Shown here piece by piece: positions 58,910 to 64,000 of a stretch of 64,000 bases of DNA. Below the pieces are notes generated by a model. That model was not told the DNA's origin. It ran no database searches and was given only the letters and a program-made list of their open reading frames with translations. The DNA lies in assembly GCF_002113125.1 (NCBI RefSeq), contig NZ_NEJP01000001.1:62001-126000 (forward strand). Reading direction: 5' to 3'. This DNA comes from Pseudomonas sp. B20(2017) (GTDB taxonomy: Bacteria; Pseudomonadota; Gammaproteobacteria; Pseudomonadales; Pseudomonadaceae). The number at the start of each line of letters is the position of its first letter. The stretch's first letter is position 1. A program made the translations under genes and the position numbers.

Positions 58910-58969
58910 TTAACTGCGCAGCATGCATTTTTTTGTTTTTTGCCCCGCTCATCGATGACCATCCGTCGC

Positions 58970-58991
58970 CACCTGTCAGATCTGACAGGTG
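58970..58991. promoter_or_regulatory. lux-box-like perfect palindrome, copy 1
   Basis: The core ACCTGTCAGATCTGACAGGT (58971-58990) is a perfect 20-bp palindrome that extends to 22 bp with one more paired base on each side. It has the length and half-site (ACCTGT/ACAGGT) of the Vibrio fischeri lux box ACCTGTAGGATCGTACAGGT. It is placed 22 bp ahead of TGATAT, so its centre would be near -45 for the gene at 59054. The same 22 bp occurs at 62515. Confidence 0.7.
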
Positions 58992-59013
58992 TGTAATTCC
59001 CCACACGGCGTTT

Positions 59014-59019
59014 TGATAT
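59014..59019 (+). promoter_or_regulatory. Candidate -10 box TGATAT
   Basis: TGATAT lies 22 bp after the palindrome and 34 bp before the ATG at 59054; no good -35 box is present, as expected for an activator-dependent promoter. The paralog has TGATAG at the same spacing. Confidence 0.45.
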
Positions 59020-59044
59020 CTCCTGCACTCCCACCACTCAGGAG
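59020..59044 (+). promoter_or_regulatory. 5' UTR hairpin that buries the Shine-Dalgarno, copy 1
   Basis: CTCCTG (59020-59025) and CAGGAG (59039-59044) pair around a 13-nt loop containing TCCCACC. CAGGAG is the ribosome-binding site of the gene at 59054, so the hairpin should reduce translation. The equivalent hairpin before the paralog has an 8-bp stem. Confidence 0.6.
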
Positions 59045-59053
59045 CCCCACCCC

Positions 59054-61429
59054 ATGACCACCTCAACCCCGCCGGAAAACATCGTTCTCGCGCTCAGTCC
59101 GCCAAAGATCAATGGCCAGACTGAGCCCGTTGCAGGCGCAATGGTTGGCTTGTCGAAGGCCGCCTATGAGCTGGTGGCCGACGGCGAGGGCGCCGTTGTA
59201 ATCGTCGACCCACCATTGTCTGGCACCACTCATCCCGGGGATGTCATAGAGCTTTGGCTCAAGGATGATGAAGCGGTACTGGACAGCGAAACCATCAGTG
59301 ATCCAAGCGCCAAGACCATCTTGCGCCTACCCAAAGACCGGTTGCATTCGGACCGGGTCAACGAGGTGCTCTATACCATTAAGCGTGGCAGCAGCAATAT
59401 TGGCACCTCCCCGCCACTCACCGTGCTTTACAACTTCATCCGTCTCGGCCTGAAAGACCGATTGACCGTGCCCGGCGGTCACTCCGAACTCAAACTGCTG
59501 CTGCCAGACGCGATCAAAAGCGGTGTCGGCCCGGATTTCGTCAGCGCCGAAGTCTGCGTCTCTCATCCATACGGCCGTGCCTACGACCGTATCGACCTCA
59601 AATGCAATGGCGAACTGATGAAGGCCTTTGTGGGTAAGGACCAGGCACCACAACCGCCCGATCCCGGTTCCGAAGAACCGATCACGTTTTGTTTCATCGT
59701 GGGTCGCGCTTTCCTGGATCGCGCGAAACGACTGGATCAGAAACTGAATTTTTCCTACACCGGCACCGATCAGATCGGCAACGGCACGGACCCCGACGCA
59801 TCGTGGTCGCCGGTGCAAACGGTTGATGAGGACCTGGATGGTACGCGCTTGCCGAAGGCGATCCTGCTGGAGCAGATGGTGGATTATCCCGGCGACGACG
59901 CCGAGAAAATTGAGCTGGAGAAACTGGCAGGCAAGCCATTACTGCTGGTGGTCCTGACGATAGACCCACGCTTTGTCGTGGGCTACGAAGTCAACGCGAC
60001 GTACACAGCGAAAAACACGGGACAACCCGCCGATGTGGTGGTACCCGTCAGCGGCAAAGTCGAAGCGGATCCGTTCGGGCAGAAAAAACCCTGCATCCTT
60101 GAAGTGCCGAACAACAAGATCTTTGCCGATAGCAACGTCATCGTGACTTACGAACTGCGCAAGCCGAACGGTGATCTGGTGGGCACTTCCATACCGGCGA
60201 CCGCTACGGTGACGGGGAGTGCTCCGATTGCATTAATGCCACCAACACTGGTGGCACCGGCGACCAACCCCATTGATGTGCTGTCCTACGAAAACGGAGT
60301 CACCGTGCGCATCGAGCACCTTGCGGCACTACCCAATGACCAGGCTCGACTGCTGGAGGTTGATCCGCCTCCTGATGCCAAGCCGTTTCTACCAACTGCG
60401 TTCAATCAAAACAAACGCGCCAACTTCAAACTCAGTCCCGAGTTTTTAGTGTCACGGCGCGGGACAAGCACCAAGTTGCGCTGGGAACTTATTCGAGAAG
60501 GAAAACCAGTCGGCGAATCAAAGAACTTGACACTGATCATAAGCCCTATTGCTGAGAATGATCCGCGCTTCCCGCCACTGAACATTGCGGGAGAAACAGG
60601 AGGGGTATTGGATGTTCGAAAACTGGACGAAGGAGCGCAGATTCTTTCGGATAAATGGCCCCTACAAAAGGCAGGCCAACCAACCTGGATAACCTTAAAT
60701 GGAACTGATAAGCAGGGCAACTCGATTAGTAAGGATGTACGGAAGGGAGAGCCTAATCCATCGGCAAATGGAATGTCAGCATCGGCACCTGTTGAATGGC
60801 TCAACGAGCTCAAGCACGACAGTAAACTGATGATAGAAGGTGCCGTCAGCCTGGATGGAAGCGCCGACAAAGAAAAAGCTGTGCTCCTTGCGCTACGCAC
60901 TTATACCGTCGCGGGCAAACGTGGGCCCGTGACGATTGATTATTGGGGGCCTGAGGGCGATCTCCCGAATGGTACAGTCCGTGACTTAGGGCACGCGACT
61001 TTGACTGTCAAATTTATCACTGGAAATCCGACGGCATATGCAAGCGTACTCCTTACTCACTCACAAGTTACGTTATCGAACGGCGCTTATACAGGACCTA
61101 CTTATGGTACACCCAGCGTAGTTTTACATCTAAAGGGAGAGAGCGCTCGAACAATCACTGTTATTGGCTCCCAACATTTAGGAAATGCGGACGACAGCAA
61201 CAAACCTCCGCCACATGGCACAATTTTAAGTGAAATAACTTTTTTCGACATTGACGGGAAAGACATCCATAGACATCAAGTGCCATACAGTCCGAATGCC
61301 GCTCACCTGATCCAGTTAACGATCCCAAACGGAAAATCATTTTATAGTTTTTCGTTCCTCCAGAAGCAGGCTCCGGTAAGACATTCCGCCTTCTGTGAGC
61401 TATATAGGATTATTTACGATGATCAATGA
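59054..61429 (+). CDS. Large modular beta-rich protein, function unknown (copy 1)
   Basis: A 791-residue protein of no family I recognise. There is no signal peptide, membrane helix or Cys-rich region. The first 440 or so residues form a conserved architecture shared with the second copy at 62600 (for example GGHSELKLLLPDAIKSGVG, FVSAEVCVSHPYGRAYD), then Ig-like or similar beta modules (TLVAPATNPIDVLSYENGVT, RGTSTKLRWELIREGKPV). The C-terminal about 230 residues look different: TITVIGSQHLGNADDSN and KSFYSFSFLQKQAPVRHSAF, encoded by clearly more AT-rich DNA from about 60400 on, as expected for an exchangeable tip domain. Start ATG at 59054, Shine-Dalgarno inside the leader hairpin. Confidence 0.8.
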   Translation: MTTSTPPENIVLALSPPKINGQTEPVAGAMVGLSKAAYELVADGEGAVVIVDPPLSGTTHPGDVIELWLKDDEAVLDSETISDPSAKTILRLPKDRLHSDRVNEVLYTIKRGSSNIGTSPPLTVLYNFIRLGLKDRLTVPGGHSELKLLLPDAIKSGVGPDFVSAEVCVSHPYGRAYDRIDLKCNGELMKAFVGKDQAPQPPDPGSEEPITFCFIVGRAFLDRAKRLDQKLNFSYTGTDQIGNGTDPDASWSPVQTVDEDLDGTRLPKAILLEQMVDYPGDDAEKIELEKLAGKPLLLVVLTIDPRFVVGYEVNATYTAKNTGQPADVVVPVSGKVEADPFGQKKPCILEVPNNKIFADSNVIVTYELRKPNGDLVGTSIPATATVTGSAPIALMPPTLVAPATNPIDVLSYENGVTVRIEHLAALPNDQARLLEVDPPPDAKPFLPTAFNQNKRANFKLSPEFLVSRRGTSTKLRWELIREGKPVGESKNLTLIISPIAENDPRFPPLNIAGETGGVLDVRKLDEGAQILSDKWPLQKAGQPTWITLNGTDKQGNSISKDVRKGEPNPSANGMSASAPVEWLNELKHDSKLMIEGAVSLDGSADKEKAVLLALRTYTVAGKRGPVTIDYWGPEGDLPNGTVRDLGHATLTVKFITGNPTAYASVLLTHSQVTLSNGAYTGPTYGTPSVVLHLKGESARTITVIGSQHLGNADDSNKPPPHGTILSEITFFDIDGKDIHRHQVPYSPNAAHLIQLTIPNGKSFYSFSFLQKQAPVRHSAFCELYRIIYDDQ

Positions 61430-61493
61430 AAAAAGGACGAATGAAAAAAGGGGCGTATTGGAATGGCACTTACTTAGCAGCTAACCACTTGGA

Positions 61494-61541
61494 GGAAAAA
61501 GGGGACGCATTTATTTGAAGGAAAAAGGGGACGCGTATTTA
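61494..61541 (+). repeat. Direct repeat GGAAAAAGGGGACGC
   Basis: AGGAAAAAGGGGACGC occurs twice (about 61494-61509 and 61520-61535) in tandem, followed by ATTTATTT or GTATTTAA. A related AAAAAAGGGGCG lies at about 61446. Similar GGGGAC-plus-AT-rich repeats are common next to RAYT-type elements; no transposase gene is present here. Confidence 0.6.
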
Positions 61542-61636
61542 ATAGCCATTGAAGCAGAGGGGGTTTTGGCGTGATTTTTCTGCTGACCGGGATGTCGCCT
61601 GCTCGCGAAGGGGCCCGAGAAGCCGGCACAAAATGC

Positions 61637-61660
61637 CTTTTAAACCCAGGCGTTTAAAAG
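61637..61660. other. AT-rich stem-loop
   Basis: CTTTTAAAC (61637-61645) and GTTTAAAAG (61652-61660) form a 9-bp perfect stem with a 6-nt loop in the 568-bp gap after copy 1. It could terminate the upstream transcript weakly or be part of a mobile repeat. Confidence 0.5.
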
Positions 61661-61759
61661 ACACCTCCAGACACGCCTTACAGGCTACGCATCCTTGCGC
61701 CACTGCCTACAGCTACGCCAGAATCCGCCGGCTTGTGCGCTTTGGGTCGGGTCCAATTG

Positions 61760-61997
61760 TGGGTCGGTCGCTGACGAATCAGCGATCGGTTTTAGCGACT
61801 CGGCTCAATTTAAAGGTGCACCTGCGTTCCAGGCTTCGTTGCGGATATGTATGTCTGCAATTTCGTTATGGTGGCTGTATGCGGGAGACCCTTGTGGTCT
61901 GCCGGGTGCCTTTGACCGGTTCGCTAACCCGCGTACAGCCGCCACCCTTCCTGTTTAGCGACAGGATTTGGCGGCTCCACTTCAAAGGAGCTTCACC
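61760..61997 (+). ncRNA. Predicted structured RNA leader of the DUF6124-type gene
   Basis: Upstream of the gene at 61998 lies a likely 5' leader. It starts with CGCTGACGAATCAGCG (61769-61784), a 6-bp stem with a CGAA loop. A multibranch unit spans 61870-61946: the outer stem is GGTGGCTGTATGCGGG (61870-61885) against CCCGCGTACAG and CCGCCACC, enclosing hairpin AGACC-CTTGT-GGTCT and a CCGG-CCGG hairpin (61902-61919). GTTTTAGCGAC near 61788 and GTTTAGCGAC near 61953 are direct repeats flanking it. No long reading frame on either strand is credible here. I recall similar leaders before such genes in Pseudomonas but cannot verify it. Confidence 0.5.
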
Positions 61998-62357
61998 ATG
62001 ATCAAACCCACACCCAACCCACCCGAAACCGACCCCGCCTCGCCCTACGAATCCGCCGATTCCAGAAAGCTTCACGAAGCCGCCGACCGCGCCCTCGATC
62101 ACTATCTCTGCCCGCCCGGCTCCACGCCACCACCGCGCAAAAACCGCAGAATGTATGCCGTCACCGCAGACTTCAAAAACGAAGAGCTGCTGGTCGATGC
62201 CTGCGAAACCCTGGCCTCAGCCAGAACCATCGTCAATGACTTCACCCAACTCATGCCCGCCTCGCAGCGCAGAACGCTGGTGGGTATTGCGCAATTGATC
62301 ATGCTCGGCGAGCTGGCAGTGAATCGGGTGCTGGATAATCTGGAATTGCCGAATTAA
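61998..62357 (+). CDS. DUF6124-family small protein
   Basis: A 119-residue cytoplasmic protein, MIKPTPNPPETDPASPYESA with a Pro/Asp-rich start, then ADRALDHYLCPPGSTPPPRK, FKNEELLVDACETLASARTI, and a C-terminal helix (LIMLGELAVNRVLDNLELPN). This matches the multicopy Pseudomonas family I know as DUF6124; its function is unknown. ATG after AAAGGAG. It is preceded by the structured leader and followed by a REP unit and terminator, sitting between the two large paralogs. Confidence 0.8.
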   Translation: MIKPTPNPPETDPASPYESADSRKLHEAADRALDHYLCPPGSTPPPRKNRRMYAVTADFKNEELLVDACETLASARTIVNDFTQLMPASQRRTLVGIAQLIMLGELAVNRVLDNLELPN

Positions 62358-62377
62358 AGCGTCGCCACTGATGCCCT

Positions 62378-62405
62378 CCTGTGGGAGTGAGCTTGCTCAC
62401 GAAGG
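62378..62405 (-). repeat. Single REP unit
   Basis: TGTGGGAGTGAGCTTGCTCA followed by CGAAGG, same family as the other REPs but with a small change and no inverted mate. Confidence 0.8.
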
Positions 62406-62440
62406 CTGACTTACAGGCAACACATCTTTCCAGACAAAAA

Positions 62441-62478
62441 GAACCGCCGTTCCGAATCAACCGGGACGGCGGTTTTTT
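62441..62478 (+). terminator. Terminator of the DUF6124-type gene
   Basis: ACCGCCGTTCC and GGGACGGCGGT form a perfect stem around GAATCAACC-type loop bases, then TTTTTT. It lies 85-120 bp past the stop and insulates copy 2 of the large paralog. Confidence 0.85.
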
Positions 62479-62514
62479 CATACAGTACACGACCACTCGT
62501 CGCAAAACCGCCGT

Positions 62515-62536
62515 CACCTGTCAGATCTGACAGGTG
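62515..62536. promoter_or_regulatory. lux-box-like perfect palindrome, copy 2
   Basis: Identical 22 bp to copy 1 (core ACCTGTCAGATCTGACAGGT), 63 bp before the GTG start of the second paralog. The distance to TGATAG (62559-62564) is 22 bp, as in copy 1, although the bases between have diverged, which supports function. Confidence 0.7.
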
Positions 62537-62563
62537 CGAAATTCATCGTTTAGCACTCTGATA

Positions 62564-62592
62564 GCTCCTGCCCGTTCCCACCGCGCAGGAGC
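62564..62592 (+). promoter_or_regulatory. 5' UTR hairpin that buries the Shine-Dalgarno, copy 2
   Basis: GCTCCTGC (62564-62571) and GCAGGAGC (62585-62592) pair perfectly around the 13-nt loop CCGTTCCCACCGC. GCAGGAG is the ribosome-binding site of the GTG at 62600. Loop size and the TCCCACC block match copy 1, while the stem has two extra pairs. Confidence 0.62.
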
Positions 62593-62599
62593 CTTATCC

Positions 62600-64000
62600 G
62601 TGACCACTTCAACCCCACCGGACAACACCGTTTTCGTTCTCTATCCGCCAATCGTCAATGGCCAGACCACGCCCGTGGAAGGTGCACATATCGGAGTGCC
62701 CTTGGTCGCCTATGATCTGGTCACCGATGGTGAAGGTGCAGTCGTTCTCGTCGATCCGCCGTCGACGGGCACCATGGATCCCGGAGACGTCATGGAGCTT
62801 TGGCTTGAGGGGGAACCGGCAGCACTGGACAGCGAAACCATTGTCGATCCGAACGCACGCACCACGCTGCGTATTCCCAAGGGTCGACTACATCCGGACC
62901 GGGTCAACAAGCTGTACTACACGATCAGGCGTGGAAGCAGCAATTTAGGGACGTCCACGCCCCCGCTCGAAATACTCTATAACCGCATCCGTCCCGGCCT
63001 GAAGGATCGCCTGACCGACCCCGGCGGCCACTCTGAACTCAAGCTCCTTCTGCCTGACGCGATCAAGAACGGCGTCGGCCCGGATTTCGTCAGCGCCGAA
63101 GTGTGTGTGGCCTATCCATATTGCCGGGCGTATGACCTCATTACCCTCAAGTGCAATGGCGAACTGCTGGAGCCCAAGCCCAAGGTCAATCCGAATCAGG
63201 CGCCGCAACCACCGAATCCCGGTGACGAAATCCCCATTACCAGTTGCTTCACCATCACCCGCGCCTTTCTGGACGAGGCGAAACGTCAGGACAAAAAACT
63301 GCATTTTTCCTACACCGTCACCGACCAGATCGGCAACGGCCCGGACACTGATGCACCGTGGTCGCCGGTACAGACGGTGGATGAGGACCTGGATGGCGTT
63401 TTACTTCCAATGCCAATTCTGCTTGAACGTAAAGAGGACTATCCCGGTGATGACGCGAGCATCATTGATCTGGAAAAACTGGCGGGTAATCCATTGCTGC
63501 TGGTCGTGATCACCAAAGACAACCGCTTTGTGGTGGGTGACGAGATTGTGGCGACCTATACCACTACAGGGCAATCCGACCCCGTGGTAGTCCGGGGCAA
63601 AGTCGAAGAGGATCCCTTCATTGGGAAACTGCCCTGTTTCCTTGAAGTGCCCAATGACAAGGTCTTCGCTGGCAGCAAGGTGACTGCGAATTATAAATTG
63701 CACAGGCCCACAGTTGGTTTGGTGGGGATTTCCAACACAGCTACCGCAACGGTGACAGAAACCGCCCCGGTCGATTTGGAGCCGCCAACACTGGTGGCAC
63801 CGGCCGTTGATCCGATTGATGTGCTGGCCTATCCCGACGGGGTGACAGTGCGCATCGAGTATCTTGGCGCACTGGAAGGAGACCGCGCACGACTGGTGGA
63901 AGTCAATCCGCCAGCAGGTTCGCCACAGTTTCCGCTGGTGGAGTTCAACAGCAATAAGCGGGTGAACACGGTGTTGAGCCCGGCGTTTCTCTCCGCGCGG
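62600..64000 (+). CDS. Large modular beta-rich protein (copy 2), 3' end outside window
   Basis: Open reading frame from the GTG at 62600 to the window edge (467 codons, no stop). It begins VTTSTPPDNTVFVLYPPIVN, aligned to copy 1 from its first residue, and keeps blocks such as PGGHSELKLLLPDAIKNGVG, DFVSAEVCV and SPVQTVDEDLDG. Identity with copy 1 is high over the first 440 residues. The variable C-terminal part is not visible. It has the same palindrome, spacing and leader hairpin as copy 1. Confidence 0.78.
   Translation, partial: MTTSTPPDNTVFVLYPPIVNGQTTPVEGAHIGVPLVAYDLVTDGEGAVVLVDPPSTGTMDPGDVMELWLEGEPAALDSETIVDPNARTTLRIPKGRLHPDRVNKLYYTIRRGSSNLGTSTPPLEILYNRIRPGLKDRLTDPGGHSELKLLLPDAIKNGVGPDFVSAEVCVAYPYCRAYDLITLKCNGELLEPKPKVNPNQAPQPPNPGDEIPITSCFTITRAFLDEAKRQDKKLHFSYTVTDQIGNGPDTDAPWSPVQTVDEDLDGVLLPMPILLERKEDYPGDDASIIDLEKLAGNPLLLVVITKDNRFVVGDEIVATYTTTGQSDPVVVRGKVEEDPFIGKLPCFLEVPNDKVFAGSKVTANYKLHRPTVGLVGISNTATATVTETAPVDLEPPTLVAPAVDPIDVLAYPDGVTVRIEYLGALEGDRARLVEVNPPAGSPQFPLVEFNSNKRVNTVLSPAFLSAR

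What the first reader, a model, noticed from the sequence alone, without database searches (positions are those of the whole stretch)
59020..62592. Conserved hairpin hides the ribosome-binding site of both paralogs
CTCCTG/CAGGAG before copy 1 and GCTCCTGC/GCAGGAGC before copy 2 form stems that include the Shine-Dalgarno, with 13-nt loops both containing TCCCACC. Sequence around the hairpin diverged but pairing, loop size and position are kept. This suggests a second, translational layer, such as an sRNA pairing with the loop, a protein, or temperature.
Basis: partly seen in the sequence, partly recalled or inferred. Interest (0 to 1): 0.62.

Follow-up and report, generated by a model that had tools for sequence, protein, structure and literature searches.

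The report
Ribosome-site-masking stem beside shared Pseudomonas promoter
Two neighbouring sister genes in a Pseudomonas genome share a promoter whose first bases can pair with the ribosome-binding site a few bases further on, which could hold down translation, but the pairing is only loosely kept in relatives and nothing yet shows that it is a regulated switch.

Summary
The stems exist as described: copy 1 CTCCTG/CAGGAG (59020-59025/59039-59044), copy 2 GCTCCTGC/GCAGGAGC (62564-62571/62585-62592), both with 13-nt loops. Copy 2 folds far better than shuffles; copy 1 does not. The inner arms are identical in both copies, so no compensating change supports pairing. In 31 distinct short leaders the unbroken pairing run is 1-8 bp, at least 6 in 11 (run-length P 0.011, uncorrected for kinship); alignment covariation does not exceed shuffles and RNAalifold predicts no pair. 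Predicted masking barely changes from 15 to 37 C, and TCCCACC is in 4 of 31 leaders, so temperature and a loop-binding sRNA are not supported. Decisive gap: the 5' arm begins 1-2 nt past a strictly placed TNTSAT hexamer (probably the -10), so it may be partly untranscribed. Unexpectedly, across 134 promoters with the same palindrome+TNTSAT module (some drive cold-shock proteins), the first three nt after TNTSAT fold with their own leader better than foreign ones do (p 0.0001-0.0002 over 38-64 gene clusters), which suggests that they are transcribed or form a DNA inverted repeat. Best reading: a short leader with a passive brake on translation; a regulated layer is unproven.

The parts
58958..58967 (+). 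AlgR-site-like ACCATCCGTC upstream of copy 1 (8 of 10 to ACCGTTCGTC), 11 bp closer to TNTSAT than the usual place
   Evidence: read by eye; motif enriched at offset -71 in 134 promoters; AlgR core CCGTTCGTC from PMC4064291 passages
58970..58991 (.). 22-bp perfect palindrome CACCTGTCAGATCTGACAGGTG (lux-box-like operator), copy 1
   Evidence: 0 expected in 100 shuffles of the window
59012..59017 (+). TTTGAT, -10-like TNTSAT hexamer 21 nt after the 20-mer box
59020..59025 (+). 5' arm CTCCTG of the copy 1 stem (anti-SD)
59026..59038 (+). 13-nt loop CACTCCCACCACT; its CTCC is an alternative anti-SD
59039..59044 (+). 3' arm CAGGAG containing the Shine-Dalgarno of copy 1
59054..61429 (+). copy 1 ORF, 791 aa; no NCBIfam or PDB match up to E 0.1, one sub-threshold Pfam match
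62459..62474 (+). terminator-like hairpin and T run just upstream of the copy 2 promoter (1 found, 0.3 expected in shuffles)
62492..62501 (+). AlgR-site-like ACCACTCGTC upstream of copy 2 (8 of 10), at the usual offset -71
   Evidence: read by eye
62515..62536 (.). identical 22-bp palindrome, copy 2
62557..62562 (+). TCTGAT, -10-like TNTSAT hexamer
62564..62571 (+). 5' arm GCTCCTGC of the copy 2 stem
62572..62584 (+). 13-nt loop CCGTTCCCACCGC; GTTCC is an alternative anti-SD
62585..62592 (+). 3' arm GCAGGAGC containing the Shine-Dalgarno of copy 2
62600..64000 (+). copy 2 ORF (GTG start, runs off the window)

Best explanation
Both paralogs inherited one promoter-leader module: an upstream AlgR-like site, a 20-22 bp palindromic operator, 21 nt, a -10-like TNTSAT, and a 36-37 nt leader whose early nucleotides (CTCCTG) are complementary to the Shine-Dalgarno (CAGGAG). 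If those nucleotides are transcribed, the mRNA begins with a stem that masks the SD and lowers translation: weakly in copy 1 (about -6 kcal/mol), strongly in copy 2 (about -17 kcal/mol). If the start is some nt later, a second anti-SD in the loop still gives a weak mask. I take it as a passive brake setting a low yield per mRNA, not a switch. Shown: sequences, fixed geometry, predicted pairing, looseness in relatives. Inferred: that the first nt after TNTSAT are in the RNA, and any effect on translation.
For: Stems and predicted masking. C at nt 5 and nt 6 (or T) can pair with the GG of the SD in 28 and 29 of 31 distinct short leaders; summed longest pairing run 158 vs 146.8 for shuffled partners, P 0.011. 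Own first 8 nt mask the SD more than foreign ones in 25 of 31. Changes that keep a pair: L212 has A-T where T-A is usual; L032 and L035 have A-T where G-C is usual. Over 134 promoters nt 1-3 after TNTSAT fold with their own leader better than swapped ones (z -5.4; cluster-level p 0.0001-0.0002); the fold-based swap test was also positive in a separately fetched set of 68 (P 0.0006-0.006). This argues that the first nucleotides are transcribed.
Against: Covariation on a 22-leader alignment does not exceed shuffles (cells paired 72.4% vs 71.1%, 121 of 500; covariation score 100 of 500); RNAalifold gives no pair; cognate vs swapped arms P 0.09; paired cells P 0.067. Relatives L195, L012, L016, L015 and L021 are predicted with the SD 24-61% unpaired, and L010 and L050, homologs of the third paralog, differ (1% vs 56%). 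No kinship-corrected support at 65% identity or lower. SD-specific swap test over 56 promoters: best P 0.03, three overlapping windows of 13 under 0.05. Swap test in the family alone P 0.07. In the set of 68 the sliding duplex test was not significant at nt 1-7 (P 0.12-0.54) and peaked at nt 10-12 instead. Purine peak at nt 8 (0.65) suits a start there. Leaders taken from nt 8 on are less structured than shuffles (mean z +0.49, s.e. 0.08, 59 leaders; coding-sequence control -0.25).
Confidence: 0.45

Rival explanations
1. The 5' arm is mostly promoter DNA (discriminator) and is not in the mRNA; the resemblance to the SD complement is a by-product of a pyrimidine tract after the -10 and a conserved SD.
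For: TNT[ACG]AT at a fixed offset (21 nt in 27 of 46 homologs with a box); the usual lux-box centre of -42.5 (PMC4471428, passage) gives +1 at 59023 / 62568; purine at nt 8 in 65% of 134 promoters; weak C preference at nt 5-6 also in other genes with this box.
Against: nt 1-3 fold with their own downstream leader beyond swapped controls, also at cluster level; CCTG at nt 5-8 is more conserved in the short-leader family than in other promoters with the box.
Confidence: 0.32
2. A 5'-terminal stem-loop is a feature of many leaders of the module that protects or times the mRNA; in copies 1 and 2 the leader is so short that the 3' arm falls on the SD.
For: Stems starting at the first nt after TNTSAT in leaders of other genes, e.g. 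L160, L066, L078, L119, L169; cluster-level statistics; in 75 non-family promoters the 5' segment does not mask the SD (0.45 own vs 0.45 foreign, lower in 37 of 75).
Against: Only 37 of 134 leaders have nt 1 paired with p>0.5; it needs a start right after TNTSAT, unusual for any sigma factor (established knowledge).
Confidence: 0.13
3. Regulated translational switch (sRNA on the loop, protein, or temperature).
For: Copy 2 stem strong enough to need opening; a second, mutually exclusive anti-SD pairing is predicted when the 5' arm is cut off, in both copies.
Against: Masking nearly unchanged at 15-37 C for all assumed 5' ends; TCCCACC in 4 of 31 leaders (read); no Rfam family at threshold; fourU and ROSE hallmarks absent. 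No sRNA search of the genome was made.
Confidence: 0.1

Closest known systems
ROSE / ROSE-like and fourU-like RNA thermometers of Pseudomonas aeruginosa (rhlA, lasI, ibpA, PA5194)
   Same: 5' UTR pairing that occludes the SD; rhlA and lasI are quorum-sensing genes (passages of PMC13104619)
   Different: Leader of 36-37 nt, no U(U/C)GCU anti-RBS, no unpaired G opposite the SD, no four U; masking barely responds to 15-37 C
LuxR-type (las/rhl) box promoters
   Same: 20-bp palindrome with CT-N12-AG (consensus as quoted in PMC4074388, passage); genome has two autoinducer-domain LuxR genes
   Different: Start site unmapped; promoters of the same module have varied N4 centres and some drive cold-shock genes; regulator unknown
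AlgU (sigma-22) promoters with AlgR sites
   Same: TNTSAT resembles the -10 TCtgA; CCGTTCGTC-like site at a fixed upstream place
   Different: No GAACTT -35 16-17 nt upstream (read); the second position of the hexamer varies

Membership tests
SD-sequestering leader | Leader sequence complementary to the SD | tested here: met
SD-sequestering leader | Both arms present in the mRNA (start at or upstream of the 5' arm) | tested here: inconclusive
   searches point different ways; no mapped start
SD-sequestering leader | Pairing maintained by compensatory change in relatives | tested here: inconclusive
   not above shuffles; one search run-length P 0.011 uncorrected for kinship; isolated double changes in L212, L032, L035
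fourU RNA thermometer | Four U opposite the SD | tested here: not met
   arms CUCCUG / GCUCCUGC
ROSE RNA thermometer | 60-120 nt or longer UTR, U(U/C)GCU anti-RBS, unpaired G (as described in PMC13104619) | tested here: not met
   no Rfam match up to E 1 for copy 1, only sub-threshold minus-strand matches for copy 2
LuxR-type box promoter | 20-bp palindrome with CT-N12-AG | tested here: met
   read; consensus
LuxR-type box promoter | Centre near -42.5 from a mapped start, and dependence on a LuxR protein | not testable with these tools
   no start mapping or mutants available
AlgU promoter | GAACTT-N16/17-TCtgA | tested here: not met
   -10-like TNTSAT present, but the commonest letters at the -35 place read TAGCCA

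The most novel reading that the evidence does not exclude
An undescribed Pseudomonas promoter-leader module: AlgR-like site, CTGTCA-N4-TGACAG palindrome, 21-nt spacer, TNTSAT, then an mRNA that begins at or within about two nt of TNTSAT with a stem-loop. It drives a family of long uncharacterised proteins and small cold-shock-domain proteins, and in short-leader members such as these two genes the 5'-terminal stem captures the Shine-Dalgarno, coupling promoter position to translational output.
Probability: 0.27. Interest if true: 0.62.

Novelty: new member of a known kind. Interest (0 to 1): 0.4.

Why it matters
If the start lies at TNTSAT, these promoters break the usual -10-to-start spacing and tie the 5' end of the mRNA to a stem, which mapping of the 5' ends would settle. 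Even if not, the shared module points to a set of well over a hundred promoters across Pseudomonas (198 read here, 134 non-redundant) with an unidentified regulator, and joins uncharacterised long proteins with cold-shock proteins.

Tried and rejected
Rejected as evidence: the two-copy comparison (arms identical, nothing compensates); alignment covariation as a decisive test, since the SD can hardly vary and the test has little power; the thermometer idea. LuxR regulator: the genome has two PF03472 genes and no PF00765 hit, but the latter search rang nowhere, controls included, so absence of LuxI is not shown. Single-linkage clustering of leaders that included the box collapsed to one cluster and was dropped. 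The first related-loci query returned nothing; the alignment query gave 43 loci. The SD-specific swap test was weak. One upstream control window (-15) was also positive over 134 promoters (z -3.3, P 0.0015) but not at cluster level (p 0.06-0.17). Sliding duplex tests agree only in part: nt 1-2 (P 0.001, 0.0004) and nt 11-12 in the first set, with upstream windows at -27 and -24 at P 0.017 and 0.04; only nt 9-12 in the second set. Rows dropped: 4 near-duplicates of 28, and L034 and L056 besides before the alignment (22 of 24 used); near-duplicates; promoters without an SD of 4 nt before (75 of 88 kept, 56 non-redundant); 80 of the places listed were fetched, and that list was itself cut short. 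Literature: the box 20-mer and five box strings gave 0 papers in the open-access library; no other search for the module was made. Papers were seen only as passages or listings.
Full report
What is there. Against dinucleotide shuffles the copy 1 stem is ordinary in folding energy (z -0.98 and -0.35) and copy 2 is strong (z -3.13 and -4.48). A helix of at least 6 bp to the SD occurs by chance in 2.75% (copy 1) and 4.3% (copy 2) of shuffles, the 8 bp of copy 2 in 0.27%. The inner arms have identical letters in both copies, so the pair of copies holds no compensating change.

Relatives. A protein search of 398 genomes of the genus found relatives in 36 genomes, 50 places. Of the 50, 46 have a box with at most 5 mismatches upstream, and the hexamer TNT[ACG]AT starts exactly 21 nt after the box in 27 of 46, at 22 in 5, at 20 in 1. 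A search of a named collection gave 43 loci, all titled Pseudomonas. The stem therefore begins 1-2 nt past a strictly placed promoter-like hexamer. On an alignment of 22 leaders the 8-bp structure pairs in 72.4% of cells against 71.1% after shuffling (121 of 500 as high), covariation score 100 of 500 as high, and RNAalifold predicts nothing. On 31 distinct short leaders (30 of the family and the unrelated L099) in fixed register the longest pairing run is 1 to 8; it is at least 6 in 11 of 31; the sum of runs exceeds shuffled partners with P 0.011 and paired cells with P 0.067, neither corrected for kinship. L212 carries A-T where T-A is usual, and L032 and L035 carry A-T where G-C is usual.

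Masking of the SD. Ensemble folding gives GGAG of copy 1 at most 7% unpaired for every assumed 5' end from nt 1 to nt 8 after the hexamer; for copy 2 0-1% for nt 1-3, 26-72% for nt 4-6 and 6-16% for nt 7-8; the values change little between 15 and 37 C. With a late start a second anti-SD inside the loop (CTCC in copy 1, GTTCC in copy 2) takes over. In the 31 short leaders the own first 8 nt leave the SD 16% unpaired against 30% with first segments of other promoters (25 of 31 lower, p 0.0009); 75 non-family promoters show no such effect (0.45 and 0.45; lower in 37 of 75). Of 47 distinct family leaders of any length 46 could be scored; grouped by protein identity the effect is p 0.02 with 38 clusters at 80% and absent at 65%, 55% and 48% (13, 6 and 5 clusters). 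So masking is a tendency of the short-leader subgroup and is lost in several close relatives.

A wider module. Scanning the same 398 genomes for the palindrome plus hexamer gave matches in 44 genomes (strict box followed by an ATG) and in 93 genomes (CTGTCA-N4-TGACAG). By eye many downstream genes encode proteins of the same kind and others small proteins; two of four small proteins tested are cold-shock-domain proteins (PF00313, E 1.5e-28 and 2e-25) and two had no Pfam match. Columns of 134 non-redundant promoters show T[TCG]T[GC]AT and, at offset -71, a site like ACCGTTCGTC: at least 7 of 10 matches in 40% against 0.8% on average over the offsets scanned (the consensus was suggested by the same columns, so this shows fixed position, not the identity of the binder). 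The AlgR core CCGTTCGTC is from PMC4064291, passages seen. By eye copy 2 has this site at the usual place and copy 1 has it 11 bp closer.

Where does the RNA start? The question decides whether the stem can exist. A lux box is usually centred at -42.5 (PMC4471428, passage seen), which would give 59023 and 62568, inside the 5' arm; purines peak at nt 8 (65%) but also at nt 1-2 (68-69%). Against a late start, swapping tests show that the first nt after the hexamer fold with their own leader better than foreign ones: 59 promoters, P 0.00005 for the first 4, 6 or 8 nt, with upstream controls P 0.05-0.06; within the copy 1/2 family alone P 0.07, within 28 other genes P 0.00005. In 68 newly fetched promoters the same test gives P 0.0006 to 0.006, controls P 0.36 and 0.97; but a sliding duplex test there is not significant at nt 1-7 and peaks at nt 10-12. 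In 134 pooled promoters nt 1-3 give z -5.4, windows at nt 4-8 nothing, nt 10 z -3.6, and one upstream window (-15) z -3.3. Averaged within gene clusters the nt 1-3 effect keeps p 0.0001-0.0002 for 64, 49 and 38 clusters, with upstream windows not significant in the same direction. In the first set alone the cluster test was weaker (p 0.01-0.07 for nt 1-6, 0.08-0.13 for nt 1-8, one control at p 0.04). Only 37 of 134 leaders have nt 1 paired with probability above 0.5, so the feature belongs to a part of the set. Leaders starting at nt 8 are less folded than shuffles (mean z +0.49). I could not reconcile these lines without start-site data.

Verdict. SD masking is plausible; a regulated layer through temperature or a loop-binding sRNA has no support here. 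The more unusual result is the inverted repeat that tends to start at the first nucleotide after TNTSAT across the module.

Noticed in passing
58958-59017 and 62492-62562; 134 promoters in relatives: Fixed architecture AlgR-like site, CTGTCA-N4-TGACAG palindrome, 21 nt, TNTSAT. The second position of the hexamer is hardly ever A (0 of 66; exceptions L131, L136, L145 and L084), unlike a sigma-70 -10.
   Followed up: partly
L120, L125: The same module precedes small cold-shock-domain protein genes in other Pseudomonas genomes; further loci look alike by eye.
   Followed up: partly
G000 contig C4:61465 (L010): Third paralog in the same genome (39% identical, query residues 7-386) with a weaker box and a 57-nt leader whose CTTCTGAG can pair with CTCAGGAG.
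   Followed up: partly
L005 (G000 contig C10): Another box with one mismatch lies before a long ORF that by eye resembles Tc/SpvB-like proteins; no canonical hexamer there. Not tested.
   Followed up: no
L112: LuxR solo that by eye lies between a ferredoxin-NADP reductase-like and an rRNA methyltransferase-like gene, as described for subgroup A in PMC8546723 (passages); possible regulator of the boxes.
   Followed up: no
61430-61560: GGAAAAAGGGGACGC occurs twice close together after copy 1 (read).
   Followed up: no
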